Source: Calocera cornea HHB12733 (taxonomy: Eukaryota > Basidiomycota > Dacrymycetes > Dacrymycetales > Dacrymycetaceae). Taken from it: a DNA stretch of 64,000 nucleotides. Positions 3,541 through 52,985 of this stretch are shown here, one piece after another; position 1 is the first letter of the stretch; each line of letters starts with the position of its first letter. The notes below the pieces were generated by a model that saw only the letters and a program-made list of their open reading frames with translations, ran no database searches and was not told the DNA's origin. The translations under genes and the position numbers were made by a program. Location of the stretch: assembly GCA_001632435.1 (NCBI GenBank), contig KV423925.1:125839-189838 (forward strand), given 5' to 3'.

Positions 3541-3548
3541 TCAGCGAC

Positions 3549-25828: not shown

Positions 25829-26360
25829 CGGAATCAAAGCTGTACAGCGGATGCAGACTGGAAAGCGGAACCAGATTCTACCACGGGAGCAGACTAAGAA
25901 AAGGAAGTAAAGCTCACAGCGGAAGCAGCCCCTATCGCGGAAGTTAATATTGGGGCGGATGCAAAATTGGGGGGAAGCAAAATTTGGCGGCAGCAAAATA
26001 TTGGGCGGAAACAAAATGAAAGACGGAATTAACCTAAAAGGCGGAACCAAATAACCCAGCTGAAGCAATACGGTGGGCGGAGGCAATAATTAGAACGGAA
26101 GCAACCCGGGGCCGCGGGGGCAGGAGAGCTTTGACTGGAGGCAAACACTCGGCGGGACCAAACTTCTAAGGTGAAGTTACCCATCCAGCAGACAAACTGA
26201 GACGCGGAAGTAGACTAAAAGCGGAAGCAAACTCCCAAAGGGAAGTACTAGTTGTGGCCGAATCAAAAGAAGGAGCGGAAACAGAACACCATGCGGAAAC
26301 CGGATGCGGGAGCGGACCCCTAAGCGGGAGCCGAAACGCTTGAAACCGAAAGCAAGGAGC
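25829..26360 (+). repeat. Array A of the 18-bp core-plus-variable repeat family
   Basis: About 29 units, each with a variant of CGGAAGCAAA followed by about 8 unrelated bases. Examples are cggaaacaaaatgaaaga, cggaattaacctaaaagg and cggaagcaaactcccaaag. The modal unit is 18 bp, with more length noise than in array C. It lies between the lectin promoter and the 3' end of the CCT-theta gene. Minus-strand frames across it are low-complexity translations, not genes. Confidence 0.85.
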
Positions 26361-26477
26361 CCAAGGAATCTATTGATCCAGTGGTGTCACAGATAGATGT
26401 TGGCTCAATCGTTGCATTAGATATACTGTTGCTACGGTATGTATCTCGAGTAGCCGGTCAGCGGAGCCACCCCTTCC

Positions 26478-28375
26478 TCAATCCTCATCCCAATCCTGTC
26501 CGCCAGCTTGCTGTGGAATCTTCGGACCACCCGCCTGCTTGGACATGATTATGCTATCCACCCGTAAAACAGCAACCGCAGCCTCGGTAGCAAGGCGAAT
26601 TGCCCACGACTTCGCAGCCAAAGAATCGAAGATCTCAGCTGTTGTGGCGTCCAGTGTCCCATCATTCTCCCCCTGTATAACTGGTAAGACAGACAACCGG
26701 GCCAATTGGCTAAGAGACATACACCGATATCAACACCCCAAGAAGCACCACCGTCCGCATGTCTTGCATATAGCCGGCTGACAACCTCACTCGTTTCAAG
26801 CCCCGCGTTCTCCCCCAGCGTATTCACTACCACCTCCAGGGCCGTCGCATATCGCCTGACGGCGTGCTGGTTCAATCCTCTCAGACCAGATCCGTACGTT
26901 TCCACTCGTCGCGCCAACTCCAGCTCGGTCGCACCGGCCCCGGGAACCATCCGCCCGTCTTTGACCAAAGCCTTGATGACATTGACACCGTCATCCACCG
27001 CTCGCTCCAAGTCATCGAGGAGGTTTGTGGTTGCGCCGCGAAGGACGATGGTGGCGGTCTTGGTTGTCTCTCCTTTCTCCTGTCGGAGTACTGTTACCCG
27101 GTCAGAGCCAATCTCGGTTGTCTCCATTACATCGACAAAGCCAGCTTCTTCTGCGGTAGGTGCACCAAGCCGTGCGAGCGGGGTGGCGCCAACTACACGG
27201 CATAACCTGCGTAGATCGAACTTCGATAGAACTTTCAACACCGCGATGTTGAGGCGATCGAGATAATGAAGAGCGAGCTCTCCCACCCCGGCACCGGCGA
27301 TGATCATTTTGACCCCCGATTCAGCAATCTCCTTCAGTATCTACAAGAAACCGTGAGGACAATAATCATGTGCAGAGCTGATCGGACTGACCTTCTCCAT
27401 ATGCTTCTCTTCCCCCGTCGAGAAGTTCAGAAGTTGATCGGCGTTCTTGAGCAGGACCGTCCCCTTCGTTTCGGTCTGTGCAATGTCGATACCACAGGTA
27501 AACACGGCGACCTTTGCCTTGTCCAGATTCTTCACGATGCCCTCGGTCTCGCGACCAAACACCATGCCGCGGACGACTCGAGAGCTGGACAGACTTCCGC
27601 CAAGAATCTTGACCACTCGAACGTTGTCGACATTGAAGTTGGAAGGATTGGGGGGCATGACAATGAGAGCTGCCTCTGCGACGAGGGACGATAGGGTGTC
27701 TTCCGTGCCATACTGCTTGGACGCAATAGCTGGCTTCAGGGCAACAGTAAGAGAGTCGAGCGTTGGGGGACTCGGCACAGTGTGTGCGGTCAGATCTATA
27801 CACTCGATCAGCAAGTCATCAGGCAAGTATACCTGAAACCCGCACTCTCCAACTCTGACAGTGCCTTCACACAAGCGAGTTCGTACCCCTGAATGACCTC
27901 GCTGGGATGCAGACCCATAATCAGAAGATGCTCCGCCTTCTTCAGGAGCTCTCCAGCCAAGATCAAAACCAGGTTTGTCGAATCGCCCATTTCAGCTTCC
28001 TGTGCTTGAGACGCCATCACGAGTAGCTTTGCGGCCGGGTGAACTACCTCGATCTCCCGCAGGATCGTCGCAGCATCGGAAGTGACGAAGAGCTTGGACA
28101 GATGATTGATGATCAGCTTGTTTCGCCCTGGCAGGATGTTAGACCGTTCCAGTTGATTTATACAGGATAAACGCACCATTGGGACCGAAGCTTGTTCTAA
28201 CGGTGTCGGATAGTTCAGAGACGGCCTCGATATTTCTCAGAACCGCCTCGTCGATGCCCGACGACACCTAACACGGTATTGAGAGGATGGAAGTGGTGGC
28301 GCCCTGATAGGAACTCACCTTGTAGCCATCCTTGAACAGCTGGAGATTGTTAGCCTTTGGCACTCTCAGAGCCAT
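26478..28375 (-). CDS. CCT8: T-complex protein 1 subunit theta (CCT8) chaperonin
   Basis: One of eight subunits of the cytosolic CCT/TRiC chaperonin that folds actin and tubulin. Start MALRVPKANNLQLFKDGYK is diagnostic of the theta subunit. The equatorial domain shows NKLIINHLSKLFVTSDAAT and MGDSTNLVLILAGELL (ATP-site GD-T/S region). The apical domain region includes CGIDIAQTETKGTVLL and GAGVGELALHYLDRLNIAVLK. The return equatorial domain has GATTNLLDDLERAVDDGVNV and VPGAGATELELARRV. It ends GGQDWDED. About five short introns are visible (for example near 26,690, 27,340, 27,800 and 28,160). I see no disruption. Confidence 0.95.
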
Positions 28376-28667
28376 TTTTGAGATAGATTGATGAGAGAGA
28401 AAGAGAGGTGGAAAGAGGACGGTGGCTCACACTACGCGGACTGCTGGGCGCGCACGACTTTTGGCCCTTCGTGAGTACGCGTCTCTGCGCGCAATTTTGC
28501 ATCCGACGAATTCCCCAAAGGGCATTCCCGCGTTTGAAATCAGGGACCTCATGGCCACTGCTCGTGCCAGTGCGATTCATGGATGCGTCTATTATAGAGA
28601 GCAACTACGGGTATGGAGCCAAGCTCAACACTAAATGAACGAGAGAGTTAGATCTGCAGAGATACGA

Positions 28668-30661
28668 TCAAGGAGTCGCACGACCCATCCAGCGCGGGTA
28701 GAGCGAGCATTCCCGGACCGTGAAGCGCTTCGTGAGCCAAGCGAGGAAGCGCTCAACCCCCAGTCCGTAACCACCGTGCTCACATGTACCGTACTTCCTC
28801 TGGTCTGTGAACCAGTAGTATGGCGCTGGGTCAATACCCTCACGCTTGTATCCCTCGAGAAGCTCTTGCATGTCTGCGATCCTCATGCTGCCCCCGACAA
28901 TCTCTCCGACACCAGGCATGAGCAGGTCGACGCTCTCCGTGAAGCCGGGGTCGCCTGGAACCTTCTTCATGTAGAAGGCCTTGATTTCTTTCGGAAACTT
29001 GTTGAGGAAAATTGGCACGCCGAGCTGGTCAGTCATCTGACGCTCGGCGGCTTCCGCGATATCGTCACCAATAACGTGATCGCCTATTTCACCCGTTTCC
29101 TCGTCCGGACGCTGGATGCCATGTTCGTTCAAGTATTTAATGGCGTCCTTGTAGTCCAGCCGCATGAAAGGGCGCTTTGGTGGCTTGAATCCGGGGTTCA
29201 ATGTCTGGATGAGCTCGGCCATGCGGGGATCCGCAAGGAGGAGGTCGATTGTTTCGCAGATCTTCGGAAGATGTAAGCACCGCACGAGTCAAGAGGTAAC
29301 AGACATACGATGCTCTCGATGTGCGTCATCAAATCGTCGAAGTTGATGAACGCCAGCTCTGCCTCGAGATGGGTGTACTCGCTCAGATGGCGCCTCGTCA
29401 AGCTTCGCCATAGCATGAGCACTAGCACCTGAGATGAGCACGCGCTACTCACCTCTTCTCTGCGCGGAAACTCTCCTGGATGCAGAAAACGTCTCCCAAG
29501 CTAGGCAAGCACGTCTCCAGATACAGCTGACTACTCTGGGTCAGGTATGCTTTCTCGCCGTAGTAGTTGAACTCGAAGAGTGTGCTGCCACCTTCAACTT
29601 GCGTCTGGACCATGCAGGGTGGGGTGACCTCGGTCAGGCTGTGCTTCGCATAAGTGGCACGGAAGGCGCTCAGCACGCCTGCGCGGACATGGAGAACCGC
29701 AGCGGCAGTCTCTCCTCGGAGCGTGAGGTGACGGAGATCGGCAAGGACGGAGGGATCCGAATGCTCGTTGAACTTGTTGGTGAAAGCATCGTCACCGCCT
29801 GGTGCAGCACCCAATGTATGCCAGTAGTCGACGATCAGCTCATGACCTCCTGGCGCGGTCTTCCCTTCTGGCACAGCCTGGACCGTCCCAACGAGCTCCA
29901 CGGTCGATTCGGTAGTCAGCATCAGCGCGTCGTACGTTTGCGCCTGCGATATGAGATGTTAGCCTGCGGACTTTGCGACTGTTTCGACCTTGACGTACGC
30001 ATTTGCCGGCAAGAATACATTGTAAGAAGCCAGTTCCGTCACGAAGCACAATGAATGTCATGTCCTTCTGCTGACGCAACCGATGCACCCAGCCAAAGAC
30101 GCGGACACGTTTCCCTCTCAGCGCCGCAAGGCCCTCAAGCTTGCTCTGCATCTTGATGAGCCCAGATGTTCCCCAGCAACTAAGACGAACGCACCCTTGT
30201 AGCCTTCGGCAGGCTGGGATCCTCCACAAGGATGACCTTCTTGCTCTCCTCAATCCTCTTCTCCTCCCTTGCCTTTGCCTCTGCCGCAGCCTTGGCATTC
30301 TTCTCCGCTTCCTCACCCGCCCTCTTCGCTTTCCTCTCGTTGTTATCGACAGCCTTCTTGGCGGACTTCAGGCCTGACTTGGTGATCTGCTGAAACTCAT
30401 CCGCAGTCTTTTTGCGAGTAAGGATGTTGACATCCTGGCCCTTCACTGTCAGCGCATGGATGGCAGTGGCATACGGCGCCTCGGCAGTGCCTGTGCCGGT
30501 TTCATCAGAGCCGGTCTCTTCATCGACATAGACGTCTGGGCCTGCGTGATTTCGTCAGTAACCCGCTACACCCTGACTTGACATTGTTATCTCTCACCCT
30601 TCTCGCCCGTGAGTCCGAGATCGGCGATCTTGTCCGTGACCTTTTCGACAATGGACGCCAT
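28668..30661 (-). CDS. DED81: Asparaginyl-tRNA synthetase, cytoplasmic (class IIb)
   Basis: Charges tRNA-Asn with asparagine. The start is [17 protein letters not shown]. An N-terminal extension with lysine-rich helix ([20 protein letters not shown]) precedes the OB-fold anticodon domain ([33 protein letters not shown]). The catalytic domain contains [31 protein letters not shown], motif 2 ([11 protein letters not shown] ... [13 protein letters not shown]) and motif 3 ([13 protein letters not shown]). It ends [12 protein letters not shown], close to the usual AsnRS ending. Several short introns split it. [12 protein letters not shown] and the lysine-rich N terminus support cytosolic AsnRS over AspRS. 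Confidence 0.94.
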
Positions 30662-30996
30662 GTTTTCTCTCAAGGGTCAAAGTAGAATAACGTGGGTCGT
30701 TCTGAATGCGTTGAGAAGGTGCAAGGGCTGAGCACTTCCAGTGATATAGGCTGTGGTTGCGCGGGTCGAGTCAGTCGGCACTTTTCTCATCGCCACGAAG
30801 GCAACGCGACACCAAACTTGGTGCCCCAGGGGCTGTGCAGCGATGTTCCTGGCAACATCGGCGAGTCAGGTGCCGGAACTTCCTTCGCCTCTTTCAGCCT
30901 TTGTCCGTGTAAGGCTCGTTACCAGGTACCTGCATGACTCGTTTCGCAAGCTCAACAACCACCCTCGGCTAAATAGATAATATACAACTTGTGATG
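30662..30996. other. AsnRS promoter region
   Basis: About 335 bp upstream of the AsnRS start and downstream of the calpain stop. No gene was recognised. Confidence 0.5.
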
Positions 30997-33900
30997 TTAC
31001 ACCTGTCTTGACTTGATCGAGCATGCAGTGCTGTACAGTTGGATGATGAAGTCTGCTTTTACATGGGCTGAAACGATGGAAGGCACGAGGAGATACGTGC
31101 CAGCATCTAGTCTGATGTTCTGGATCAGAGCACCGGCGATCGAGTCACTGAAGCTTCCAGAGTTGGCCAGCTCGGCTTGGGTGGTATCGTGAGGTCCGGG
31201 TATGCTGAGGGAAAGCTTGACTGGAGTGATGGAAGCCGGCGGGACAAGCTGTAGCCTTGCACTGGACCTGAATCAGTTCGCGTGCTTCCACGCATGGAGA
31301 ACAAGCGCACGTGAAGGTAGTTGGTTTTGCGAGAGTCACCTCATATCTCGGAATTTGAGGGATTCGTTCCGAGGCCACTCCGCTCCTGGACGAAAACATG
31401 AGAGCGGTCGGATGATGCAGCGCTTCCCTTACCATCGCCCTTGCAGTCGCCTGCTGAACATGCCAGCCCCCTCCTGAGGGATGGGCTTGATCTCGAAAGC
31501 TTGCGAGCACTCGATCTGCAGCTTGTACTGGCCAAGCGTGTCGGGCTCGAACGACGATACGATGACTGTGTAAGTCCCAGGGCGGACTTGATCCTCGCAC
31601 AGCCCAAAGCCATAGTTGTAAGTCCCGGAGTCTTTGATAGTTTTCGTCTGGCGAATACTGCAGAATACGTATCAGTGTGCCGCGCTAGTGTTCGGAGATG
31701 GAGAGCCGTACTCAAACACCCTCTCTCCTCGGCCCCATACAAGCTGGACGTGTAGGGGCAAATCCTTCGACCCATGCACGGACAGGCGCAGCTGAGCACC
31801 GTTTGGACTCGAAGCGCCAGTGGGACCAGGTTTCAGAGTGAGCGCATACTGCGGATTCCGCATGAACGTCGGCTGCAGAGCGTTGCCGCCCGCTGTGGCT
31901 GCCGTAAACTCGCCGTCGACCCATTGGGAGAAGGCGTAGACATGCGCCGGCTCGCTGAGCGTGAAGGGTGACGCGGAAAAGACGGAGAGCGTGTAGGTGG
32001 CGTCTGCTGTGCCGGTGCCGTGTCGAGAGGCTATGATGGACAGCGCGCTTTCGTCGGGGAAGCGGGATGTGCGCACGAGAACATGCGGGCTGTCGGTGTA
32101 CGTCGCCTTCCCAGGAGTCAGTCACTGTTTGCGCATCTTTTGTCCTTTACGTACCTCTAAGGAGGGCCGGCCGACTGATAGTGAGTCGACCTCGGTGGCA
32201 TGAAACACATGGGCAGCGATGAAGCTCTGGTCTACGTCCCTTCCAGTGATGTGCCGAGATAGCAACACCCAGACGTCTGCTTCCTCACTCAACGCGCCGG
32301 AGAGCGTCAGGTTGTACTGATGATTCGACGCTGAAGACTTGTCAGTCACCGGGCAGGCAAGGCGGAGAGGAAAAGCGCCAACTCCACGGCTCGTCGCCAT
32401 TCTGAGCTTGGTTGGGTTGCCATGTGCTGCGCCACTGTTAGAGCAGGACAGCCGGTAAAGTGTGCAGTGACCCACCTATGCACAACCGCTTTGTGCGGGA
32501 AGATGCCCGGGTCCCAATTGAGGTATATGCTGTCGAAGATCCCACAAAGGTCATCCCACTCCATGCGTATCGGTCCCTCTGCCTCCCTCAGCCCGCTTCC
32601 TTCCTGCGCAGGGCGCTCACGAGCAGCAGCATACTCGTCTGACGGCACGCCCTCCCGCCGCCGGCCCCATGGGTTCCACAGGCTCACGGTGCGCGCATGG
32701 TCCTGTTCGGAGAGGCCGATCACCGCGTACGCGTGGTACGGCGTGAGCTGGTGCATGCCGAAGGTGCCGGGCGACCTGCCCGTGCCGACGGTCATGAGGC
32801 ACTTGCCCTCGTTGAAGGCGCGGCTGAGGCGACGCCAGGCTCTTTCGCGTTGAAACTTCGCGCTGTGGATCGTCAGTACGGCCGTCTTACGGCTTAGAGA
32901 GGCAAGGCATACTCGACGATGCGCAGATGCTCTGGTATCCACCCCGTGATCGCACTTCGCCTCATCAGCCCAAGCAACGCAACGCAGAAACGGGAGCGAA
33001 CTCACTGCAGATCGATCGATCCGTTGCTCCCCTCGAAATCATATCCGCCCATCACCTTCAGATACGCCTTCTCGACCAAGCTGGGCCAGAGCGCCTTGCT
33101 TCCCCGCGTGCTCACGCACAGCAGGCACCCGCTCCCGCGCACGGGCAGACGGTCGTCCACCGCCACCCGCCGCTCCGCGCCGTTCAGCACCAGGCGCACC
33201 TCGTACCTCCCCTGCGGGCTGCGCGCGGGCCACCCGTCCGCATCCTGGGGATAGAGGGTGCCGAGGGCGAGCCGGCCGCCGAACCGCGCGTTGTGCTCCA
33301 CGCATACGGTCAGCGCAGCCACCACAGAGCAGTCCGTGATCGTCTCCTGGACGAGGTCGCACGGGTCCAGCTCGGGCGAGTGCAGCGGCGTGGACGGGCG
33401 CTGCCAGGAGGCGAGAGCGGTGTGCTGCGCCACCGAGAGCGACAGCAGGCCGTCGGGGTCCTCCCACACCCCCGCGCTCCCCGCAGCAGGAGCACCAGTG
33501 GCACCGGTGGAGGACGGCCCCTCCCAGAGGGCGTACCGCCGGCCCCTCACCGACCCCGCGCGGTCCAGCACATCCGCCTGGGCAGCCTTCCCGAGCCTCT
33601 CGCGGGCGACGGGCCGCACGTCCCGCTTGTGCGCCTTGATCTTCTCTGCGCGGTCGAGGGCGCGCTTGGCCAGGGCTTTGTAGCGCGCTTGGTCCGCGGG
33701 CGACGGGTTGGCAGCATTGGCATTGGCATTGGAAGATGGGGATGGGGGCGATGTGGGGGATGTGGCGAGAGCGGACGAGGTTGGCGGGCGTGAGAGGTGG
33801 AGGAAGGACTGCGCGCTCGTGACGTACAGCCGGAACGCGTCATCGTACTTGCCTGCGAGCTCGAGCTGGGCTGCTCTGTTGAGGGCGGCCTGAACGAAGG

Positions 33901-37868: not shown

Positions 37869-37874
37869 TATATA
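37869..37874 (+). promoter_or_regulatory. Possible TATA box of methyltransferase 2
   Basis: The word tatata (in gggtatatagcc) lies about 85-90 bp upstream of the start codon at 37,960, a suitable place for a fungal core promoter. Judged on position only. Confidence 0.45.
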
Positions 37875-39585: not shown

Positions 39586-40526
39586 CGGGAGCAAGAAATC
39601 GGCTAATTCGGAGCAACGAAGCTTTCAGCTGGATGCAAAGGGAGCCCAAGGCTGGAGCAACAGGACCCCAAACAGCCCGCATAGCGGAAGTAACGACCTT
39701 CTCAAGCGGAAGCAAAGACACTCTCGGACCCCAAGTACATAGCGTTGAGCGGAAGTAAATGCGCCATTACCGGAAGCAAATACAGCATGGGGAGTCTGGT
39801 ATGACAAGCGGAAGCAGATAGGCCAGGGGAAACTTGATATACCAAACGGATGCTAAAGTGGCCGGGCGGAGCCCAAGTCCCCACTGGAAGTGAATACCTC
39901 AGCAGAGAATAATGGAAACAAACTTAAAAGCGGAAACAGATACTTGAGCGGAGGCAAGCGGTGTGAAGGCGAAGCAAATAAAGGAGTGGAAGCACAGTTC
40001 TGCACGGAGGCAAAGCCTCCACAGATGCAAAGGCTGTGGCGGATGTAAATCCTTCCACGGAATTAGAAAACACAGCGGATGCGAAAAAAAACTCAGCGGA
40101 GGCGAAATGTAGCGGAAACACATTCCTGAGCGGAAGCAAACAAAGCAGCGGAATCAGATCTGGCCGATACAAAAGGCTGAGGGGAGGCAGAGATCACTAC
40201 GGAAGGTAAAGATCGTAGCGGAATCAAAATATTGAGCGGGACTAAATACACCAGCGGAGGCAGAAGCTGTCCCGGAAAAGGCTGAAGCGGAAGCAACCTA
40301 TTCCTCGGGAGCACAATTCTCCACGTATGCAAACGTCCCAGCGGAAGCAAGTCAAGTACTGATACACAGCCAAACTACCTGATAGAAACGGAGAAATAGA
40401 CGGAGGTAAAGGTGACACGGAAACAAACACTACCGCGGAAGCTAATTATCTTGAATGAACGGAAGTTAAAACATAAAGCGGAGGCAGAAATGGGCGGGGA
40501 CAGAAACATGTGCCCGAAGCAGGGCC
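39586..40526 (+). repeat. Array B of the 18-bp core-plus-variable repeat family
   Basis: The largest array, about 50 units over 0.94 kb. The left third is more decayed, with unit spacing of 19-22 bp; the rest runs at 16-20 bp with a mode of 18. Clear units include agcggaagcaaacaaagc, agcggaatcaaaatattg and agcggaagcaacctattc. It lies between the end of methyltransferase 2 and the panB-type gene, ending about 220 bp upstream of the panB start codon. Confidence 0.85.
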
Positions 40527-40749
40527 GCTGGCCGTTCCGAGTGCCGGGCTTGGGGAGGTCAGGGTCCTGATGACGCCGTTACATAGCCGGTGAACAGGAA
40601 CTTTCATTCCTGTCCATTCTGTGGGGTTATTACTCAGGCACATCACTACCCAACCACTGAGCTGCTTGCACCGTATACACACCGCACACCCTCCCTGCTG
40701 GACAGCACAACATTAGACGATACGACGACACAGCACACTAGACGACACA

Positions 40750-41801
40750 ATGTTCCGACCTTTCCCACCTCGAATACCCCGTTACCCCAGACAGTGTGCC
40801 GCACCCCACTGCGCTGGCCCATCAACAGGCGCACGGTGGATGAGCGTGCGGCCAGAGGAGCACGCGAGTGCTCTCATGCGTGCGTCTCCCTCCGCTCCCA
40901 CGGCCTCACACCCGCTGACCCCGCCCAAGCCCGGAAGAAAGTGACCATCCAGCGTCTGCACCAGCTCCGTGCTTCCCGCACGCCCATCACCATGCTAACA
41001 GCGTACGACTACCCCTCGGCGCGCCGGGCCGAGGGCGCGGACATCGACATCTGCCTCGTGGGTGACTCGCTCGCCCAGGTTGCCCTCGGCTACAGCAGCA
41101 CCACGCAGCTCACCCTCGACGAGATGCTGTACCACTGCCGCGCCGTCTCCCGGGGTGCCAAGACGCCGCTCCTGGTCGCGGACATGCCTTTCGGGACGTA
41201 CCAGCTCGGCGTACGGGATGCATTAGAGACAGCGGTGCGACTCGTCCGAGAGGGGCAGATGGAGGCGGTCAAGTTGGAGGGTAACGAAGAGATCATACCA
41301 CACGTGCAAGCACTCACCGGCTTCGGCATACCCGTCATGGGCCACATCGGCCTGTTACCCCAACGACACGCAAGTCTCTCGGGGTACAAAGTCCAGGGTC
41401 GCTCCGCGCAACACGCCTTACAGATCTTGCGCTCCGCACAGGCGCTACAAGATGCGGGCGCGTTCTCCATTGTGCTCGAGGCGATCCCCGCGCAACTCGC
41501 AGCGCACATTACCGGGCAGCTGCAGATTCCCACGATTGGCATCGGCGCTGGGAAAGGATGCGCAGGGCAAGTACTGGTACAGGACGATGCCATTGGGTTG
41601 TGGGCGGGGCACAAGGCCAAGTTCGTGAGACGGTTTGCGGAGGTGGGGAAGGAGGCGGCGATTGGCGTGACAGGGTACGCGAGGGCCGTTAGGGAGGGTA
41701 CATTCCCTAGAGACGGCGACGAGGGCTATTCCATGGAGGAGGAGGAGTTCGAGAGGTTTCTGAAAGCGGAGGAGGAGGCGGACGCCGTGCAAAGCAGTTG
41801 A
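40750..41801 (+). CDS. panB: Ketopantoate hydroxymethyltransferase (3-methyl-2-oxobutanoate hydroxymethyltransferase)
   Basis: First step of pantothenate synthesis: adds a hydroxymethyl group from methylene-tetrahydrofolate to alpha-ketoisovalerate. The arginine-rich N terminus MFRPFPPRIPRYPRQCA suggests mitochondrial import. A single 50-bp intron (40,880-40,929, gtgcgt...cccaag) joins EEHASALM to PRKKVTIQRLHQL. The TIM-barrel motifs are TMLTAYDYPSA, DICLVGDSLAQVALGY (metal-binding Asp), LVADMPFGTYQ, VKLEGNEEI, VMGHIGLLPQ and FSIVLEAIPAQLA (catalytic Glu region), then PTIGIGAGKGCAGQVLV. Length (about 330 codons) is normal for fungi. I chose 40,750 over earlier in-frame Met codons because only this frame splices cleanly. 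Confidence 0.93.
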
Positions 41802-41937
41802 GGAGGAACAGATGGTGGCGGAGGTTGGCTCGGATGGACGGCTGTAGACTGGTGCAACAGGTATTTATAGGATAGTTGAACGAAACAAAGCACACCTTGC
41901 AATCTCGACAAGCTCATTCAACATCAAGTACGATTCT

Positions 41938-43200: not shown

Positions 43201-43326
43201 AAGAGTTTCGGAAATGAGAAATTGGCGCTCCCCACTTCGGAGACAAATTGTCGGGGACTGAAGTTCGAGTTCTATGTAAGTATCTCACGGCAATTTGGGA
43301 GGACGCAGACGCCTGATTTCAACAGG

Positions 43327-43925
43327 CGGAAGTGGGAGCGAAAGGATTTTCGCGGAACCAAACTACGCAACGGAAGTAAATACCATAGCGGAAGCAATCC
43401 GGATCCCGGAGGCTAAGCCTTCGGGCGGATGCAACAAATGAAGTGGGAGTAGATTCATGGACGGAGGTAAACAAGGAAGCGGAAACAAATATTGGAGCGG
43501 AAGCAAACATTGAAACGGATGCAAAGATGGTTACGGAAGCAAATGATTGGGCGGGCGCAAAGTGCAACGGAAGCAAATAGGGAGCCGGAGGTAAATGGGA
43601 AGATGGAAGCAAGCCTTCTGCGGAAGCAAAGATGATACAGGAAGCAAATAGGATAGCGGATGTAAACATGGTGACGGAAGCAAGCAAAATAGCGGAAGCA
43701 ATGATTAGGACGGAAGTAAAACTGCAGCCGGGAGCAAAGGCGAGGACGGAGTGAAATGCATGAGCGGAGGCAGATTTTATGGGCGACACAGATACTGCAG
43801 CGGAAGCACATATAAAAACCGAAGCAACCACATCCGCGGAAAGAGAATCAAGCGGAAGCAACAATCGGGGCCGGAGACAAATAATAGAGGGGAAGCAAAG
43901 ATCTAGACGGAAGCAACAAAGCGAC
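43327..43925 (+). repeat. Array C of the 18-bp core-plus-variable repeat family (most regular copy)
   Basis: About 32 units. By eye, roughly 25 of 31 intervals between successive cores are exactly 18 bp, and the others differ by 1-2 bp. Consecutive units include cggaaacaaatattggag, cggaagcaaacattgaaa, cggatgcaaagatggtta and cggaagcaaatgattggg. The core is CGGAAGCAAA with variation mainly at positions 5-8, and the last 7-8 bases differ in nearly every unit. Because 18 is six codons, long frames stay open on the minus strand and repeat patterns like FASVxx, which mimics coding. Confidence 0.9.
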
Positions 43926-44384
43926 ACCGCTGCCGCCAAAAGAAAGGCATCTCAATGCGGGAGCAGAACTTCCCGTCAAACCGAAGCAACATATCGCCAA
44001 ACTCTGGAGTCCCTTTCAAAGTTGCTCCGCCCGCACGGGCTTTTTGCTTTCGCTTGGGCATTTCATCACTCCGGCTTCGACCTGGTGTCGGGGTCTGCCC
44101 GCCCGCGGGCACAAGTTAACGTGGAGCTAAGGCTTACATATGTAGCATGGCCAAAATCCTGGCTGTCCGCTAGATGCCTCCGTAGAAGGCGTAGAGTCAT
44201 CATGATCTACCCTTCAAGCAATGCACCACGCTCGCACACGCACATGTTTGAATAGCCCTGGACAGCACATCAAGTTTCGAGGTGCAGACCTGCGCTAAAC
44301 ATAGCGATACATTGGAATGCATATCCACAGCTCTCATTGAGAAACATCTCCGAGTCATATTGTAGCTACCACCGATCCACATGG
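43926..44384. other. Intergenic
   Basis: About 460 bp between array C and the 3' end of the next minus-strand gene. No gene or motif was recognised. Confidence 0.45.
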
Positions 44385-46422
44385 TTAGGGCACCGTTTTT
44401 GGAGTGGGAAGGCACAACTTACCCACGCTCTGTGAATCTGTCGTCCCATCAGCTCTCCACCATGTTGTCCTGCCTGTGAAAACATTGTCGTGCAGCCACC
44501 TCCAATCTCCGTGCCGATATTCACACTGGAATATCTGTTCGGTGCCATTGCGTTGAGACGGCATAACAAAGGAACCGTTCGGGTGCCCAGCAGATCCGGG
44601 ACGGTACCACATGGACGGTGGCAGAAGACAGTACCCCACCTCGAGATCTTCAGCCGAGTTGAAAGTGATTACTGCAACGCGGCGCTGAGGATAGAACGTC
44701 GGATGGTCATCAAGAATGGATATGTGGGTAGGGAAAGGGGCGCTGGTCGTGCGCGAAGTTACCAACTCGTCGGGTGTCGGATGCGGAGGATCGTCCTGGA
44801 AGGTAGCGGTCGATGATGCGTTGAGACCCGAGGTCGAAGAGACAAGGTCATTGGGGGATCCATTAGAGGGCGCGACAGACATCGGAGCGGCGGGAAGTGA
44901 CACGATCGGCGGTGTAGTGTAGACCTTGACTATCTCGTCCAGGAATATGTCATCGGGCAGGCCCATAAGCGCGACGGAGGTGCGTTGGCGGGGTATAGCA
45001 GATGCTCTGCGCTCGCTCACTGGAAATCGCCTGATCCTGCGGCTGCTGGGTACGAATCGTTCTCGCCCTGACCAAGTATCGTCCAATGCGTCGCCAAGGA
45101 ACTCAGCTTTAGGTTCGATCTTGGGAGGTGGCCAAAACTCGGCGTTCCGGATGGATTCAGTGTAGCCCCACCAGTCGCCAGACTTGAACTCCACCTTGCA
45201 CTTCTTCGGTATGGCCGAGGCAGACGTTATGTCAAAGAAGCAGCGAGCGCCTCCCGCAGAGCCCTTGTATGGTTCGAGCAAGAGGGTTTCGTAGCCGGAG
45301 AGGATGCCCATTGCGCGATCAGCAACTACAGCATCCACATATTGCAGGACACAGCACGGCAGGAAGATTGTATGAGCAGCGAGGTCCGGCAGCAGTACAA
45401 TACGTAGAGGTTTTGGGACATCTTCGGGTGCGTTGTCTACGAAGAGATCGACCAAATCCTTTAGGCGAACTTGCGCAGGCAGCGGAGTGACAAGAATGGT
45501 AGTGATCAAATCTACAAGTCTCATCAATGACGTTGACGGGAGTAGAAGAGATGGAAGACAAACCTGAAGCAGCCTGTTTGATTGTAGCAAGTGGTTGAGC
45601 TCCGCTGATGTTGTCCTTTCTGAGCCATTCCGCGACCCAGAGGAGACCCTTGCCTTCTTCACCCTTTTCCACTTCTTCATCACTGCAAAGGACAACGTCC
45701 AAGTCCAGAAGCCAGAACCAGGACTCGCCGTCCTCTTCCATCTGCACGAGCTGGTGCTTCATCCAGTCAAACATCTCCGCAAGAGAAGCTGCATCCTCCG
45801 GGTTGAGGAACCGAACAAGAGCAGTGCTGCGCGTGGTGTCGCCTGGTTCCATGCTGCACATTGCGGGCCGTAAGCTAATCCATAGAGGAACGGGAATGCG
45901 GCTGGTATAGCGGAAGCGAGTCGAGGCGGTTTTGGTGAGAATATTAACGAGATCATCGAGAGTCTGATATTGAGGGAGGTTCAGGAGTCTGACGAGCGTG
46001 AATGGTTGGGCGGAGGAATCGGAGATGGGAAGCTGCAGAAGGGGTGGCGATCGAGGTCGCGGCGTATGTGGGGGAGTGTAAGCCGCCGATGACGGATACA
46101 TGAGTGGCGGAGATGGAGAACGGGAGGAAGACGAGGAGACATTCGAGGAGTTGCCCTCTGGATTGGAGGAGAATACGGAAGAAGTACGAGATTCGCTGCC
46201 ATGGACTTGACGCTGGATGAAGCCCCAATCGCGCTCTGAGCCACTGACGCTGTGCACGTCAAGTCCATTTATATCCTCGCCGCCTATGTCATCATCGCTA
46301 GCGAAGTCCAGATCGGAGGGCGGGTCAAGCGTACGAGCAGACGAGACGAGGGAGAACGGGGAGGAGGGTGGCGATGAGCCGTCCTCTGGCTCGCTTGCCA
46401 TCAACTCATAGTCGGAGAGCAT
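44385..46422 (-). CDS. Unknown fungal protein (about 660 residues)
   Basis: Not recognised. The N-terminal ~150 residues (MLSDYELMASEPEDG...) are disordered, rich in Ser, Pro and Asp. Two regions then look folded: FTLVRLLNLPQYQTLDDLVNILT with STALVRFLNPEDAASLAEMFDWM (about residues 140-240), and ITTILVTPLPAQVRLKDLVDLFVD with LRIVLLPDLAAHTIFLPCCVLQYVD (about 310-390). These alternate beta-strands and helices and resemble RNA-recognition-type or other ferredoxin-like folds, but no RNP motif is clear. A further beta-rich part includes FQCEYRHGDWRWLHDNVF and WWGYTESIRNAEFWPPPK. One intron (about 45,517-45,568) joins the two long frames. The coding call is firm because both long frames join in phase; the function is open. 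Confidence 0.72.
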
Positions 46423-47195
46423 GGTGGAGGAGGGTTAAGGAGGGCGAAGAGGGCGACACAGGCACTGGGCGTCTTTATATGCGCGGTGGTGCCGCCTTGT
46501 GGTGAATTGATGGGGTCAAAGGCGTGGAAGGGTGCATACCCGAAATCACGGGTCCAGCGCATCTCCAGCACAGTTGCGTCCAAACCCGAGAGGGGCCGAG
46601 GCGCGTGTCGACTGCGCTCGCAGTCTTCGGATCCGCACTGTTCGCCCTAACAGGAACTCGAGGCGCTTTTTCCGAAGAAGCGTGCGTGAGTCACCTCCTA
46701 TGTGGGGCTGGACGGGATCGACTTGTCGGCTTCCCGTGACTTGACTCCTGGTTGAAAGAAATCCATCCCGTCCCCGCGACGCGGTCGTTCAGTACAGATG
46801 CCTGTTCGGCTTTCCACTATCGGAGCAGCGTCGTCGACCTCAATGGTGCATACGTGCACCATTGGATGAAGTATGAAGCGCAATTGTGAAGGAATGGGTA
46901 GGATGTGTGCAGAAACGAACACGTAAGTAGTAATTGGAGCGTCGGTCAATGCCGGGAAGCAGATCAAGGTTGACTCTTCCCACTGGCCGCCCCATTTTGT
47001 GCCGACACCATCGGAAGCAAACGTTGAGGTGCTTGGCATGCCCATTCACGCTCCGGTCGTATCGCTCAGACCTCCCCGCTCCTCGTCTTCTCCTCCTCCT
47101 CGTTACCACTTACAAAGCGCTGGCGCTCCCTCCCTCCCGTTCAGACCGGCGAGCCAACGTTGTTGTCGCACTAGTGTGGCCCGCCGCTGTCGGCG
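46423..47195. other. Divergent intergenic region
   Basis: About 770 bp between divergent genes, acting as promoter DNA for both. On the minus strand a TATAAAG word at 46,474-46,480 lies about 55 bp upstream of the 46,422 start codon. No gene was seen. Confidence 0.45.
46474..46480 (-). promoter_or_regulatory. Possible TATA box of the 44.4-46.4 kb gene
   Basis: The minus strand reads catataaagac about 55 bp upstream of the start codon. Assigned from word and position only. Confidence 0.45.
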
Positions 47196-48621
47196 ATGAT
47201 TATCATTGAGGACGACCCGTTTCTCGACGAGAAGGACCCCCTCCTCGGCATCCTCAGCAGCCCACGAGATGTCGACCTCGCTCTCCCTCCGCCTGTCCCC
47301 CCTGGGCCTCCCCAGACGGTCAATATCCAACTACCTCCGATGAGTAGATGGATGCAGAAGAAGTTGAGATGGTGGAGAACATGGTACGACGCGTTGTTAC
47401 CTCGCGCGGATCACAAGCGCTCATGGTCATTGCGCAGGAAATTACTGCGAAACGTTGGGACCTTGCTGGCAGTTGTCGTTGTTACAACAGTCATAGTCTT
47501 TCTCGCGATACATTTGGCGCAGTACAGGATTGTACCGGTGCGTAATCTCTCCTGCATGTCTCTGCAATCTACTGATGCGGTAGTAGGCCATCCCCCCGTC
47601 CCGAAAGTATTCATGGGATGTACGACGGCATGGCAAGAAGAGGAACGAATACCCACTCGGCATGGGTCAACCTCCGCCGATGGATCTTCCCGATCTATCT
47701 TATCTCCCACCGCCTCGTATTCCTCCGCCAAAAGATCGAATAAGCGCCAACTACGGCTCTCCAACATCATGCAATGCGTCCGAAGCCTTGTTCACCATCG
47801 ACGACCCGCTACGCTATGCCCTCAACGACACAGAGGTGCTGTCCATCCAAGTTCTGGGTACAATAAATGGGACGGTTAGAGTGGAGGTTGGAGAGGGCTT
47901 GTTGCCCGAGATTGCGTTGGTCGTAAATGGAGTCGCGGATGGGTTGAGTGCGTGTCTGTTGGCAAACGAAGGTCCACATCAAGGGTTGGGTATCTGGACA
48001 ACGCCCTTCACTCTCTCGAAGGACGGAACCGGGTTAGTGAAAGCGAAGAACTGCACGAAGAGCCAGCTGGGCGCAGCCTTGGAGATCACCCACTCTGTCG
48101 ACATCGTGATGCGTCTTCCCCACAACGCATCTGTGAAGACATTGGACGTCTGGATCCCCTACATGGGCTTTGAAGTGTCACATCCTATCGAGGCATTTGC
48201 ATTCGACGACGTCGTCATCACCGCCGGTGGAAGCCTCACTTTGCAGGTACGCACCTTCAGAGCCTCCAGCCCCGCATGAACTAATATCGCCCCGATCAGG
48301 GATTGCAATCCCAAAACATATGGGCGACGACCCGCTTTGCACCCATACAAGGCAATATATCGGCATCAGCCGTCTATCTCGCTTCAGATCTCGGGGAGAT
48401 TTGGACTAATATCACAGTCACTGAGCCACAAAACGGCACGGTGCCGTCCATAACGCTTTCCACTTGTAACGCGTACGTTCAGCCATGTAATCTATCTCGC
48501 TCGAACTGACCTTGACGTACCACGCAGGACAATCAACGCGAACATCATGAACCCACAGCCGGGGATGCGGGTGAAGACACGGACAACCAATGCTCCCGCT
48601 GACGTTTTCTACTTGTTTTGA
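47196..48621 (+). CDS. Single-pass (type II) membrane protein of unknown function
   Basis: The start is MIIIEDDPFLDEKDPLLG. A basic stretch (MQKKLRWWRTW ... RSWSLRRKLLR) precedes one strong transmembrane segment (LLAVVVVTTVIVFLAIHLA, about residues 95-115), predicting a cytosolic N terminus and luminal or extracellular C terminus. The C-terminal ~300 residues are beta-rich with many N-glycosylation sites (NDT, NGT, NCT, NAS, NIS, NIT) and repeated LQVLGTINGTVRVEV-like strands. Introns fit at about 47,539-47,587, 48,247-48,298 and 48,477-48,528. It ends ADVFYLF. Glycan-rich luminal domains of this kind are common in fungal hypothetical cell-surface proteins; no family was recognised. Confidence 0.78.
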
Positions 48622-48762
48622 ATCTGTCGGACTACTTCGCATACGCACACATCACCTTGTATAGTAGCGCATCTGTACAAATACACATGGAATGGATCAA
48701 GGAGCTCCCGAGCAGCTGCCGATTTTAATCGCATGGAAGAAAACATGTCACCGCAACGCATT

Positions 48763-49849
48763 TTATTGATCTAGTTGACATCCATAAACTTGCTTCGCGA
48801 CTCGTCTCCATTCAGCCTTGTTGATTGCCCATTCCTCTGCGTATTCTGCTTCTAAGGGATGTAACCTCTTCCCAACGATTACGAGACTGTGCAGCGGCGG
48901 GCCAAAGATATCCTCCGCGTCGTTGAGCTCTTCCAGGGTACCAGCAACAATGCGTTGCTCCGAGGATCCCACCCTGGACATGCCAATGGCCAGTGTTTCT
49001 TTGGGCGAAAGAATGCTCTGCTGGCGCTGAGATTCCGTGTAGAGCAGCTGCTCAACCGCCAGCGGGATTGACATGTATCGTGGCGGCTCATAGATTTTGC
49101 GACCCCTGCCAGCGCACATATCAGCAGCCGTAAGCTTTGAGTACAGCACAGCAGTGATCATACCTGGCCAGATTCTCCTCGCTCTGCTCTTTCACTTTGA
49201 TGTCCAGAAGCACAAGGGTGTGCATTCCCAGATCCGCATTCTCCTTCACGCGATCATAGAAGCTGTCCGGCTTCCAGTTATCGGTAAAGAATACCAGAGA
49301 GACAGCCTGGCCAAAGTTGTAGAGCTGTAGACCACAAGCGCCGATCGCGTTCATGATCGATGCGTTGTGGATGACTCGGCTCGGAATCCCCAACGCCCTT
49401 GCGCGTAGAAGAAGATCGGTATGCGTTGTCGCACTAAGAATGGTCAACGGTACGCTCAGTCATGGGAGGAAGAACCCTCACCCAAAAGGATCTCCAACGA
49501 CGAGGAAAGCGACATCGATGTCTTTGGCACCTTCTAGGATCGCATCGCTCTCCGTCTCCACCATGTCCCGATCAGCTACGATCACGGCTTTGCCATAGAA
49601 AGCTTCCTTGTAGTTACAGTCAGTCTATTTCTCGGAGTATTTCAATCAATTAGGGCATACCAGCTGCTCCTTCGGCACAAGGAGAATGCTCGTATAGGCT
49701 TCCAGGTACACTCGACTGCAAGCTTTGACCGCCTAGATCTCATCAGGGTGAGGCAAGTGAAAGGTTCAGAGAAGCGCTATGAGTACCTCCAGTCCACGAA
49801 GCGTGATGTCCCTTTCGTCGGCGAGCCCGAGTCCAATCACGTATAACAT
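48763..49849 (-). CDS. DPH5: Diphthine (methyl ester) synthase, DPH5
   Basis: SAM-dependent methyltransferase that acts on the modified histidine of eEF2 during diphthamide synthesis, in the cytosol. Start [21 protein letters not shown] is canonical. The central exon carries [50 protein letters not shown] and [22 protein letters not shown]. The last exon has [39 protein letters not shown] and [22 protein letters not shown], ending GCQLDQ. Three or four short introns separate the exons. It is divergent from the Erv2-like gene, with only about 185 bp between start codons. Confidence 0.94.
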
Positions 49850-50034
49850 GTCTGTGTACGCCTCAGTCGAGCTGCAGAAGCAGGTCGAGTGAGTGAGTGG
49901 CCGGCTACAAATGCGGGGCGAGGGCGTGATGTAAGAACCCGTCGCCCTGCCAAGGGTCCTGGCGACCTTTTTGAGTTCCTGGTCGTGCGCCACACCGCTT
50001 CTCAGCGACCTGCCTCTGCTTGTCCACGAGCTGA

Positions 50035-50931
50035 ATGCCGATGGTGTCGCGGTTCACCCGCGTCTTCCTCGCCGTATCTCTGCTACTCACGGTAAGCAGG
50101 CGCCTCTCCTCGTCAACCGTTTACTCACCTCATGCGTCAGCTTGCTCTCGTTTCAGTCTTCTTCAACCCGCCTGTGCGAACATACTTCGACCCATGGACC
50201 GGCGTAGAGCTCAGTGAGGGCGGCGTTGAGCACCGCGGGACCGATGACATGCTTGATTTGGAGAGGGTCATGGGAGGAGATGTGATCATGGGGAAGCTTG
50301 CAAATGAAACAGCAAAGTGCGGCTTGACCATGCGCTGTGCCCGATGAAGTGCTGATCAGGAACAGGGCTGAGTTGGGAAGGGCTGCTTGGAGAGTCCTGC
50401 ACTTGGTGACCTTGAGATATCCCGATGTAAGGACTTCTTCGAGAGAACGTTGATCTTGCGGATATCTCAACTGGGTATCAGAAACCTACCCCGGACCAAC
50501 GCGACACACTGCGGTCGTTCTTCTATCTATTCGCTCGCCTATACCCCTGTGGACAGTGCGCACAGGAGTTTCAGCAGCTCCTGAAAGAGTATCCTCCTCA
50601 GGTCGGTGCTCTTTCCTCCGTGGGCTTGCAATAGACTCATGTTTGCGGTAGACATCATCCCGCAAGACAGCGTCGTTATGGTGTGTCCTGTGCCCTCCGG
50701 TCGTTGTCAAGGAGTACTGAAGCAGAATCCAGGCTATGTCACGTCCACAACCTCGTCAACGAACGTCTTGAAAAGCCCGCATTTGATTGCACGAAGCTCG
50801 ACGAGGCGTATGATTGCGGCTGCGGAACAGACAAAGACAACGAAGATGACGACGACGATCCTTTGATTGAAGGCTTGGCGAGGGATAGGGTCACAAATGA
50901 GGCGCTCCAGAAAGGCGGTATTGGGCTCTAA
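50035..50931 (+). CDS. ERV2: Erv1/Alr-family FAD sulfhydryl oxidase, Erv2-like (ER)
   Basis: Catalyses disulfide formation using FAD and oxygen. The N terminus MPMVSRFTRVFLAVSLLLT is a signal or anchor segment, which fits the ER Erv2 type rather than mitochondrial Erv1. The FAD-binding domain has RAELGRAAWRVLHLVTLRYPD, DQRDTLRSFFYLFARLYPCGQCAQEF (active CxxC), LLKEYPPQ, TSSRKTASLWLCHVHNLVNERLEKPAFDC and YDCGCG. It ends EALQKGGIGL. Five introns fit well: gtaagc...gcgtcag, gtgcgg...gatcag, gtaagg...tatcag, gtcggt...cggtag and gtgtgt...tccag. A second Met at 50,041 is also possible. The acidic tail (DNEDDDDDP) is typical of disordered C termini. Confidence 0.9.
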
Positions 50932-51235
50932 TGCCTGCAATTTACATTTATTTGGGACAGTGTAAGATATTTATCGACTAGATACCCACCAGCAATGACT
51001 CAAGTGATATGCTCTGTTTGCGGCCTCCCATTGCACACGCATAAAGTCGGTGTGCTAGAGGAGGCACAGCTCTATCCCTGCAGACAACGACGTATGCAGA
51101 TCGGTATAACGCGTGTTTATCAATCTCAGACAGAAATTACAACAGAGTACACGGGCACAACAGACAGCATACGGAAAGTCGCAATTTGGCACTACTTCTA
51201 CAAGGTGCCAGAATCCACGTCTTGAGACCACTCGA
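50932..51235. other. Convergent 3' region
   Basis: About 300 bp between convergent genes. A 76-codon plus-strand frame (50,995-51,225) lacks motifs and is more likely UTR. Confidence 0.4.
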
Positions 51236-52584
51236 TCAGATAACCAGTTCCTCTTCGAGATTGTAGCTCTCCAAGTCTTTGTATAGTTTCATACGCTGCT
51301 CGCGCGCTTGAAGAACGCCCTGCACGCTGAAAGTCAACAATCGTGTAGCAATATAAACGGAACGGAACAAGTAACAGACCTCCTCAGGCTCACTCTCCTC
51401 ATCGACTTGATCCGTTTTCTGCCGCTTGCGAAGGTCGGCCTTTGTCCCTTTCGGCGCGGCTTTGGACACTTTTCGCGCTGTCTTCCGAGGCATGGGGTCC
51501 CTTGAAGTATTCTCCTGGTCATTTTTCTTGGTCCTGGCGGCAGAGCGTGGTTTCCGCTTTGGCAGGCGAGCAACAAGATCGTCCGCACCACCAGTTGTGG
51601 CAGCCTTCGATCGTGGCTTGCGGGCCCTCTTAGGGGCTTCAACTTGCTCCACCTCTTCCAATTCTTCTGCCTCTTCCTCCTCCACAGGTTCGAATGCATT
51701 CGTGACGTCTGCGAGTGCGGCATCAACCTCAGCCATGCTCTGCTCTTCCTGCATCCTCCTGCGCATCGGTGAGGCGAAAGGTACGCCATCGGAGAACTGC
51801 ACACTGGGCTCGTCTGCCATGATCTCCGCTTCATGCTGGATCTGCTCCTCCATCCGGTGGATAGCTTCCGACTTCGATGGTCTAAGGCGTTTCTCGAGAG
51901 CGAAGAAGCCGAATGGGTCTGACGACGGAGAGAGAGAGGCATCGCGCGGAGGCTCTGGTTGTGCAGTTGTTTGAGGCCGCGGCCGGATCATCCCAGGACG
52001 GCGCAAGGGTCGTCCAAGACGCTTGGACGGCGGGAGAAGCGCTTGAGTATTGGCATTGGCCTCTCCTGAGTCGGTCGATGACGAGGGCAAACGAGATGGT
52101 GGTGACGAAGGTGGTAGATGGGTAGGCAAGTCATTCTTTGGGGAAGGCGTGACATCCAGAGGCATACTGGGAGGCTCCAGGATGTCCTGCGAGACCGATA
52201 CTGACGCGAGGCTTTCATTGGCGCCCGCATTCAGGATGTCTTCCACACGGTCTTCTGACGTGTCGAGGTTGTTGTTTGGGGTTCGCGGGGAGGAGACCGC
52301 CAACGGCTCGAACACGGGCTGCTCTGTCGATGACACGGTACCTAGCCATTCACCATGAGCGTTTGTCATGCAAGAAAGCCGCATATATGCTCACCTTGAG
52401 GGCTCTCCTGCTCGTCCTGCACCTCGTTCCGCTTGGCCCTGGTAGCACGGCCGCGTGGGGCCCTGGCAGCCGCCGCCTTCGGCGCGCTTGAGCTAGTGGT
52501 TCGGGTCGTCCGACGGGGTCGCTGAGGTGGGCTGTCGCTGGAATCTGTCGTTTGGGTCGCTTGTCTACGCGTGCGGGGCGCCAT
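51236..52584 (-). CDS. Disordered, basic, probably nuclear protein of unknown function
   Basis: Start MAPRTRRQATQTTDSSDSPP. Exon 1 is Arg/Thr/Ala-rich (KAAAARAPRGRATRAKRN) and joins the main exon near QEQESPQ. The body is low-complexity with Pro/Ser segments. One conserved-looking island, DPFGFFALEKRLRPSKSEA, is followed by an acidic helix (EEEEAEELEEVEQVEAP) and several basic clusters (KRARKPRSKAA, KRKPRSAARTKK, RKTARKVSKAAPKGTKA). A final exon ends EQRMKLYKDLESYNLEEELVI. The basic clusters suggest nuclear localisation and nucleic-acid or chromatin contact. I do not recognise the family. Array D begins about 120 bp upstream of its start codon. Confidence 0.72.
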
Positions 52585-52706
52585 GGTGGTGGTGATCTCG
52601 GACGAAGGCGTGCCTGAGGGAAGCGCGGCGCCGGGAGGGGATGACGACGGACTCTGACCAACATCGACGCCGACACACGCGCTGGTCACGTGTCTGACTT
52701 ACTTCA

Positions 52707-52985
52707 CGGGAGCAAATACTTCAGCGGATGCACACATAAGCGGATGTAAAAACGCGGATGCAACACGGGGGCGGCAGTAGAAAAGAGGCCCCGGACGCAA
52801 AATGAGTGATCGGAGGCAAATGTTCGACGGATGCAAGGAAAATTGAGCAGAAGCAAGTATTTTAGCGGAAGCAGAGACGAAAGGGAAGCAAACCCCTCAG
52901 CGGAAGCAAGCCGCTTCGGAAGTAAAGGTTGAAGCATACGACGGAGGCAAATGCAATAACGGAAGAAAGTATCCGAAAATATCCG
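52707..52985 (+). repeat. Array D of the 18-bp core-plus-variable repeat family
   Basis: The shortest and noisiest array, about 16 units, for example cgggagcaaatacttcag, cggaagcagagacgaaag and cggaggcaaatgcaataa. Spacing ranges 14-20 bp. It has the same orientation as the other three arrays and lies between the divergent disordered-protein and monooxygenase genes. Confidence 0.8.

What the first reader, a model, noticed from the sequence alone, without database searches (positions are those of the whole stretch)
25829..52985. Family of four intergenic arrays built from an 18-bp unit with a fixed core and a hypervariable remainder
Seen directly: four stretches (25,829-26,360; 39,586-40,526; 43,327-43,925; 52,707-52,985) consist of tandem units of the form CGGAAGCAAA plus about 8 bases, roughly 125 units in all. 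The core is recognisable in almost every unit (common variants: cggatgcaaa, cggaggcaaa, cggaagtaaa, cgggagcaaa), but the other 7-8 bases are different from unit to unit, both within and between arrays. Ordinary minisatellites spread by unequal exchange or slippage and keep whole units alike. Here only part of the unit is kept alike at a constant spacing, which suggests selection on the core and its pitch, or an unusual way of adding units. I know of no fungal repeat class with this design.
Basis: partly seen in the sequence, partly recalled or inferred. Interest (0 to 1): 0.9.

Follow-up and report, generated by a model that had tools for sequence, protein, structure and literature searches.

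The report
Centromere-pointing DNA arrays in a fungus
In a jelly fungus, short repeated DNA motifs with a fixed core and a random remainder lie around presumed centromeres, often between ordinary genes, and most of them point away from the centromere, like direction signs for machinery moving along the chromosome.

Summary
In detail: the four arrays hold 125 units, and all 72 exact-18 units differ in their variable 8 bases while the core is kept. The unit is [A][G]CGGAAGCAAA[Y]N5. The organism is Calocera cornea HHB12733. Core dimers at 18-bp pitch number 619 genome-wide (<=2 mismatches) against 2 for the reversed pattern. Two repeat searches mark one centromere-like centre on each of 26 contigs. 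The core reads away from that centre in 97 of 116 listed arrays (p=9e-14); in 25 of the 34 added by a second pattern (p=0.009); and in 59 of 66 unpaired arrays >20 kb away. All lie within 122 kb. The window's arrays lie 50-76 kb right of their centre and point outward. Core quality does not fall with distance, and surrounding DNA has no overall strand skew. Best reading: selectively maintained, polar binding-site arrays that stall or direct a machine moving along pericentromeric DNA (loop extruder or replication fork). Core conservation and polarity are shown; centromere identity, bound protein and machine are inferred.

The parts
25811..26364 (+). Array 1: 31 units; core CGGAAGCAAA on + strand, reading away from the C12 centre (~49.6 kb to its left)
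39586..40531 (+). Array 2: 43 called units from 39685, with looser units from 39586; outward; ~63.6 kb from centre
43327..43998 (+). Array 3: 36 units; outward; ~67.1 kb from centre. The open frame on the other strand (43319-43939) has no homologue found
52707..52985 (+). Array 4: 15 units, loosest pitch of the four (29% exactly 18); outward; ~76.3 kb from centre
26549..27307 (-). Neighbouring ordinary gene: TCP-1/cpn60 chaperonin open frame, 3' side towards array 1
40590..41801 (+). Neighbouring ordinary gene: ketopantoate hydroxymethyltransferase, downstream of array 2; identifies the organism

Best explanation
The arrays are polar binding platforms laid out around centromeres. Each 18-bp unit is a ~13-bp recognition site for one sequence-specific DNA-binding protein plus ~5 bp of unconstrained linker. 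Some eight to fifty sites in a row make a dense, one-way protein tract. Such tracts, up to several per arm and in part between normal genes, lie within ~120 kb on both sides of the centromere and mostly face outward, so a machine moving along the chromosome from or towards the centromere meets them mostly from the same side. The most likely machine is centromere-loaded cohesin or condensin doing loop extrusion, stalled or anchored by the tracts to build the pericentromeric domain; a polar replication-fork barrier is the next choice. SHOWN from sequence: fixed core with near-random remainder, outward polarity about independently located centres, absence of listed convergent pairs, no decay with distance, no overall strand skew of surrounding DNA. 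INFERRED: that the centres are the functional centromeres, that a protein binds the core, that polarity is what is selected, and which machine is affected.
For: Core columns 1-10 carry 0.7-1.6 bits while columns 12-16 carry 0.01-0.05 bits in 423 units; in the window core pair identity is 0.69 against 0.26. If units arose by duplication, the free columns are near saturation while the core is not, which needs purifying selection. Centres were located with two DNA queries that hold no array (the query loci C37 and C73 were themselves picked for their arrays, the other 24 contigs were not) and then used to score arrays. 72 of 82 arrays (<=1 mismatch) read outward, p=1e-12. A second, degenerate pattern gave 34 further arrays, 25 outward, p=0.009; union 97 of 116; 23 of 25 contigs mostly outward, 2 ties, 0 mostly inward; beyond 20 kb 67 of 82, and 59 of 66 when paired arrays are set aside; local opposite pairs <1.5 kb in the listings are 10 divergent, 0 convergent. 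Within-contig shuffling of strands never reached the observed (-,+) excess in 20,000 trials. Core mismatch does not rise with distance (rho -0.19, p 0.31, 32 arrays). GC and AT skew of non-array DNA is ~0 on both sides. The window arrays lie among ordinary genes (chaperonin, class II tRNA synthetase, panB).
Against: 19 of 116 listed arrays point inward; 10 of these have an opposite-strand partner within 1.5 kb, 9 do not. The out-of-sample test alone is only p=0.009. Two weakly scored chains (C8:205323, score 27.6; C200:44987, score 16.6) would make convergent neighbours, though such scores also occur on reversed sequence. Of the 100 listed single 13-bp motifs, 11 lie on contigs without a listed array. 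No CENP-A, protein-binding, Hi-C or replication data were available. Some arrays carry partly inverted flanking sequence that looks like the ends of a mobile element. No second species could be examined.
Confidence: 0.5

Rival explanations
1. The arrays are the sub-terminal repeats of a decayed DNA-transposon-like or centromere-flanking module (inverted ends, divergent arrays inside). Copies landed in pericentromeres; what remains is mostly relic, and the core may once have bound a transposase.
For: Outer flanks of arrays in C143, C37, C13, C39, C65 and C21 are alike, and the C13 pair at 202 kb has the flank at both outer ends. Inner flanks resemble the outer flank inverted: a profile from eight such pieces gives 13 hits, none on reversed sequence; 8 of the 13 are the seeds, 2 their copies in inverted arms and 3 new but weak. 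Listed local pairs are always divergent, as in an element with inverted ends. A pogo-like DDE_1 transposase and a chromodomain Ty3/gypsy element sit in the centres.
Against: None of the four window arrays matches the flank profiles. Relics should not keep the core while linker and flank are lost, nor keep it equally well at 50-76 kb. Random insertion gives no outward polarity of solo arrays (59 of 66). The DDE_1 element read at C73 has its own 44-bp inverted ends without the motif.
Confidence: 0.2
2. Polarity reflects a strand-biased insertion or expansion process (for example onto the lagging-strand template of forks leaving an early-firing centromeric origin) and has no function of its own.
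For: Orientation equals the direction of forks that would move out from a centre, and divergent pairs could mark local origins.
Against: Non-array DNA shows no overall skew difference between sides. This does not explain selective conservation of the core or why listed dimers lie on only 41 of 302 contigs. Of the 34 arrays analysed only C8:199691 shows clear recent expansion; C105:90318 has one repeated unit.
Confidence: 0.15
3. The arrays are promoters, enhancers or RNA-processing sites of outward-transcribed pericentromeric RNAs that feed heterochromatin or RNA interference.
For: Strand-asymmetric, purine-rich units near centromere-like centres.
Against: An 18-bp pitch is not expected of RNA sites (reasoning, not tested). 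The arrangement of open frames next to the arrays differs from array to array in the window. No RNA data.
Confidence: 0.1
4. An ordinary old minisatellite decayed by mutation, or a coding repeat.
For: A slight excess of similarity within arrays (1.43 of 5 identical in columns 12-16 against 1.27 between arrays); one young homogeneous array.
Against: Core kept while the rest is near random; outward polarity; no homologue of the frame through array 3.
Confidence: 0.05

Closest known systems
KOPS (FtsK-orienting polar sequences) of bacteria
   Same: Short motifs oriented along each arm from one reference point to another, read by a moving machine (abstract of PMC2680272; listing).
   Different: KOPS are 8-bp sequences oriented from origin to terminus on bacterial chromosome arms. 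Here there are dense 18-bp-pitch arrays in a eukaryote, seen only within ~122 kb of a centre.
CTCF sites / cohesin loop anchors
   Same: Long, directional, protein-binding motifs whose orientation matters to an extruding machine (orientation rule recalled).
   Different: Different motif, tight tandem arrays, centromere-centred layout. A passage of PMC8856730 says CTCF is absent in yeast and convergent genes are found at loop boundaries. A preprint titled 'CTCF maintains pericentromere function and mitotic fidelity' (PMC12157408) was seen only in the listing.
Budding-yeast pericentromere borders (convergent genes)
   Different: There the stop is convergent genes at the flanking boundaries. Here it would be motif arrays, up to several per side.
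Retrotransposon-rich fungal regional centromeres (Cryptococcus)
   Same: Centres rich in LTR elements, with transposons shared between centromeres (passages of PMC11185503).
   Different: No polar motif array outside the centromere is mentioned in the passages that I read.
Mucor circinelloides centromeres (41-bp motif plus pericentric Grem-LINE1)
   Same: A DNA motif shared by all centromeres and elements in the pericentric regions (passages of PMC9089191 and PMC7377519).
   Different: That motif is in the core centromere. Any orientation of Grem-LINE1 is recalled only; the paper on it is not held.

Membership tests
Ordinary minisatellite | Whole units stay alike within an array | tested here: not met
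   72 of 72 distinct 8-mers in the window; 410 distinct among 424 exact-18 units outside the young C8 array. Met in C8:199691.
Coding tandem repeat | Frame kept and a homologous protein exists | tested here: not met
   Spacings of 16, 17, 19, 20 and others break the frame; no homologue for the frame through array 3. Frames through the other arrays were not searched.
DNA transposon with sub-terminal repeats / MITE | Terminal inverted repeats at both ends of each copy | tested here: inconclusive
   Flank profile: 13 hits in 290 kb, 8 of them its own seeds; none at the window arrays.
DNA transposon with sub-terminal repeats / MITE | Insertion orientation independent of the distant centromere | tested here: not met
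   97 of 116 listed arrays outward.
DNA transposon with sub-terminal repeats / MITE | Target-site duplication, empty sites | not tested
   No second strain or species at hand.
KOPS-like polar guide sequence | Orientation switches at one reference locus | tested here: met
   23 of 25 contigs mostly outward, 2 ties.
KOPS-like polar guide sequence | Spread over the whole arm | tested here: not met
   No listed array on a centre contig lies beyond 122 kb of the centre; listed dimers lie on 41 of 302 contigs. The assembly is fragmented and listings favour well-kept arrays.
KOPS-like polar guide sequence | Recognised by a translocase | not testable with these tools
   Needs biochemistry.
Centromeric satellite bound by CENP-B | Lies in the gene-free centromere array | tested here: not met
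   Window arrays lie among genes 50-76 kb away, although other arrays lie right beside centres.
Centromeric satellite bound by CENP-B | CENP-B box present | not tested
   No pattern search was made for it.
Cohesin loop anchor (CTCF type) | Bound by an anchor protein, loop visible in Hi-C | not testable with these tools
   No such data.

The most novel reading that the evidence does not exclude
A eukaryotic counterpart of bacterial polar guide sequences: a dedicated DNA-binding protein and its 18-bp-pitch arrays give the pericentromeres of this fungus a built-in outward direction, written into gene-bearing chromosome arms, which a loop extruder or replication fork reads.
Probability: 0.35. Interest if true: 0.95.

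Novelty: categorically new. Interest (0 to 1): 0.85.

Why it matters
If the polarity is functional, this would be a DNA-encoded compass around eukaryotic centromeres. It offers a natural, sequence-defined system to ask whether motif direction alone can steer or stop SMC complexes or forks near centromeres. It could also give a way to find centromeres and their orientation in relatives of this fungus from raw sequence, if relatives share it (untested). Nothing like it was seen in the nine full-text searches made here, judged from listed titles and abstract starts; that library holds only openly licensed papers.

Tried and rejected
Ordinary minisatellite: rejected. Coding repeat: disfavoured. 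Known RNA family: no match in the window at gathering thresholds. Two mixed organisms as the reason for array-free contigs: the RNA polymerase second-subunit family has matches on three contigs (C1, C41, C45), as one haploid genome should. Age layers (older arrays pushed outward): not supported, no decay with distance. Directional growth from one end: not supported, units are poorest at both ends. General replication strand skew: not seen overall. Pogo-type transposase as owner of the motif: the 44-bp inverted ends of the C73 copy do not resemble it. Dyad centres: nine were read side by side by eye and no shared element stood out.
Full report
WHAT WAS CHECKED. The four arrays exist as described. 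Of 72 units with a neighbour at exactly 18 bp, all 72 have different variable 8-mers; core columns are 0.69 identical between pairs of units and columns 12-16 only 0.26. Over 34 arrays with 723 units (arrays scoring at least 60 with at least 8 units; two arrays in duplicate inverted arms were dropped), the 423 exact-18 units give 0.7-1.6 bits in columns 1-10, 0.25 in column 11, 0.01-0.05 in columns 12-16, and 0.36 and 0.63 in columns 17 and 18. So the unit is a 13-bp motif AGCGGAAGCAAAY and five nearly free bases. The pitch is 18 in 423 of 689 steps, 17 in 68, 19 in 52, with a caller that favours 18. At score 45 the caller gives 45 arrays in 290 kb, 4 on reversed and 0 on resampled sequence.

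ORGANISM AND GENOME. The panB product beside array 2 is 100% identical, over the 72% of the query that aligns, to a protein of Calocera cornea HHB12733 on a 343,492-base contig; the window's contig C12 has exactly that length. The genome held is 32.1 Mb in 302 contigs and the window is C12:125839-189838. The RNA polymerase second-subunit family matches three contigs, as one haploid genome should.

GENOME-WIDE. The dimer of the core at 18-bp pitch occurs 329 + 290 times with up to two mismatches, against 1 + 1 for the reversed pattern (100 places listed). Listings of dimers with up to one mismatch (one place was not shown) group into 103 arrays on 39 contigs; searches added two contigs. The single 13-bp motif occurs 118 times against 3; of the 100 places listed, 11 are on contigs without a listed array.

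CENTRES. At C37 and C143 the same array occurs twice in large inverted arms (3,064 bp at 99.8%; 3,899 bp at 100%). Identical dimers on opposite strands indicate the same layout at C8, C65 and C73, of which only part was fetched. In all five the left copy is on the minus and the right copy on the plus strand. Inside lie tandem repeats of 161-162 bp (for C8, C65, C73) and pieces shared between chromosomes at about 64-98% identity, among them Ty3/gypsy pieces with reverse transcriptase, integrase and chromodomain and a pogo-like DDE_1 transposase. A 1.6-kb piece of the retrotransposon core finds 23 places on 18 contigs, and a 570-bp piece of the 162-bp repeat finds 54 places on 18 contigs; these counts are lower bounds. 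Together they mark one spot on each of 26 contigs, 10 of them by both. These look like centromeres; this is inference, since no chromatin data exist here. The window's own centre is at C12 ~102.3 kb: a 34-unit minus-strand array ends ~0.4 kb left of the 162-bp repeats.

POLARITY. With centres defined by those two searches, whose queries contain no array, 72 of 82 arrays read outward (p = 1e-12), 42 of 44 within 40 kb, and none lies beyond 122 kb. Because this pattern was noticed in that first set, I ran a different, degenerate pattern. It gave 34 arrays on centre contigs that were not in the first set: 25 outward, 9 inward (p = 0.009); five of the nine inward ones have an opposite-strand neighbour within 1.5 kb. 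Union: 97 of 116; beyond 20 kb 67 of 82; unpaired beyond 20 kb 59 of 66; paired beyond 20 kb 8 of 16, as must be for pairs. Of the 19 inward arrays 10 are paired. Of 25 centre contigs with arrays, 23 are mostly outward, 2 tied, 0 mostly inward; C127 has a centre and no listed array. Of the four window arrays only array 3 is in these listings; the other three come from the caller and also read outward. Opposite-strand neighbours within 1.5 kb are divergent in 10 of 10 in the listings; in the caller's output two weak chains (scores 27.6 and 16.6) would be convergent with a neighbour. Of seven pairs with a known centre and both halves scoring at least 45, the outward half has more units in six; C5 (332836 and 333428) is the exception. 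Contigs without a recognised centre were not scored. For three of them the length is known (C48, C51, C200): each has a minus-strand array near its right end, as expected if the centre lies beyond it, but C200 and C51 also have a smaller plus-strand array there.

WHAT THE POLARITY IS NOT. It is not a by-product of overall strand composition: outside arrays the GC skew is -0.001 left and +0.001 right of centres, the AT skew 0.002 and 0.003 (~192 kb; single loci range from about -0.05 to +0.05; C48, C51 and C200 were counted as left by assumption). Contigs are in arbitrary orientation, so assembly does not create it. Neighbouring genes do not obviously explain it: from open frames alone, array 1 lies on the 3' side of a chaperonin gene, arrays 2 and 4 upstream of panB and of an FMO-like gene, array 3 beyond the 5' end of an unnamed frame (gene models were not verified).

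SELECTION. Units in a tandem array were probably once copies of each other. Here the linker columns have lost almost all likeness (1.4-1.5 of 5 identical within arrays against 1.27 between arrays, chance about 1.25) while the core has not. Core mismatch does not increase with distance from the centre (rho -0.19, p 0.31, 32 arrays on centre contigs). Several arrays share decayed flanks, partly inverted; the window arrays, at 50-76 kb, have no match to them but equally good cores. This fits maintenance of the core. One array, C8:199691, holds runs of identical units, so units can multiply by ordinary tandem duplication.

MECHANISM. An orientation that matters over tens of kilobases relative to one distant point is, in known biology, the mark of elements read by something that travels: KOPS with FtsK (abstract), CTCF with cohesin and Tus/Ter-type fork barriers (both recalled). 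A 13-bp asymmetric site at 18-bp pitch, repeated some 8-50 times, would make a dense one-way protein tract. [quoted passage not shown] I therefore put loop-extrusion stalling first and polar fork barriers second. The protein is unknown.

LIMITS. Array-level statistics rest on pattern listings that favour well-conserved arrays, and most sampled loci were chosen for perfect dimers. There was no second species or strain, and no expression or chromatin data. Nine full-text searches listed nothing that describes such arrays, judged from titles and abstract starts; most subscription papers are not in that library. For PMC2680272 I read the abstract; for PMC8856730, PMC9089191, PMC7377519 and PMC11185503 only passages.

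Noticed in passing
G000 C8:199691-199907 (L018): Array with recently amplified identical units (dimer rows repeat four times and three times); C105:90318 has one repeated unit.
   Followed up: partly
C37:168386-182998 and C143 ~39.0-53.6 kb: Near-perfect inverted arms (99.8% and 100%) around transposon-rich cores: recent gene conversion or duplication across the presumed centromere.
   Followed up: partly
L036 1296-1694, L037 665-1082, L038 3196-3765: A 161-162 bp tandem repeat (9 x 18; near a nucleosome repeat length, recalled) on the inner side of the arrays at these centres.
   Followed up: partly
L038:6384-8236: Pogo-like DDE_1 element of ~1.85 kb with 44-bp inverted ends (86% complementary) inside a centre; related pieces at the C37, C8 and C21 centres.
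   Followed up: partly
window 3545-3949 and 25135-25524: Inverted repeat pair of ~410 bp, 78% identical, the right copy just left of array 1.
   Followed up: no
window 17555-17659 and 17978-18082: Inverted pair of 105 bp, 96% identical.
   Followed up: no
window 1-142: Repeat piece also found at C48 (94%) and beside the C37 arms (81%).
   Followed up: no
L016 (C48) 5825-7755 and L017 (C200) 4599-6529: A 1.9-kb duplicate (99.8%) near two contig ends, with a short array beside it.
   Followed up: no
window 56001-63000: G+C rises to 67-72% on the right side of the window.
   Followed up: no
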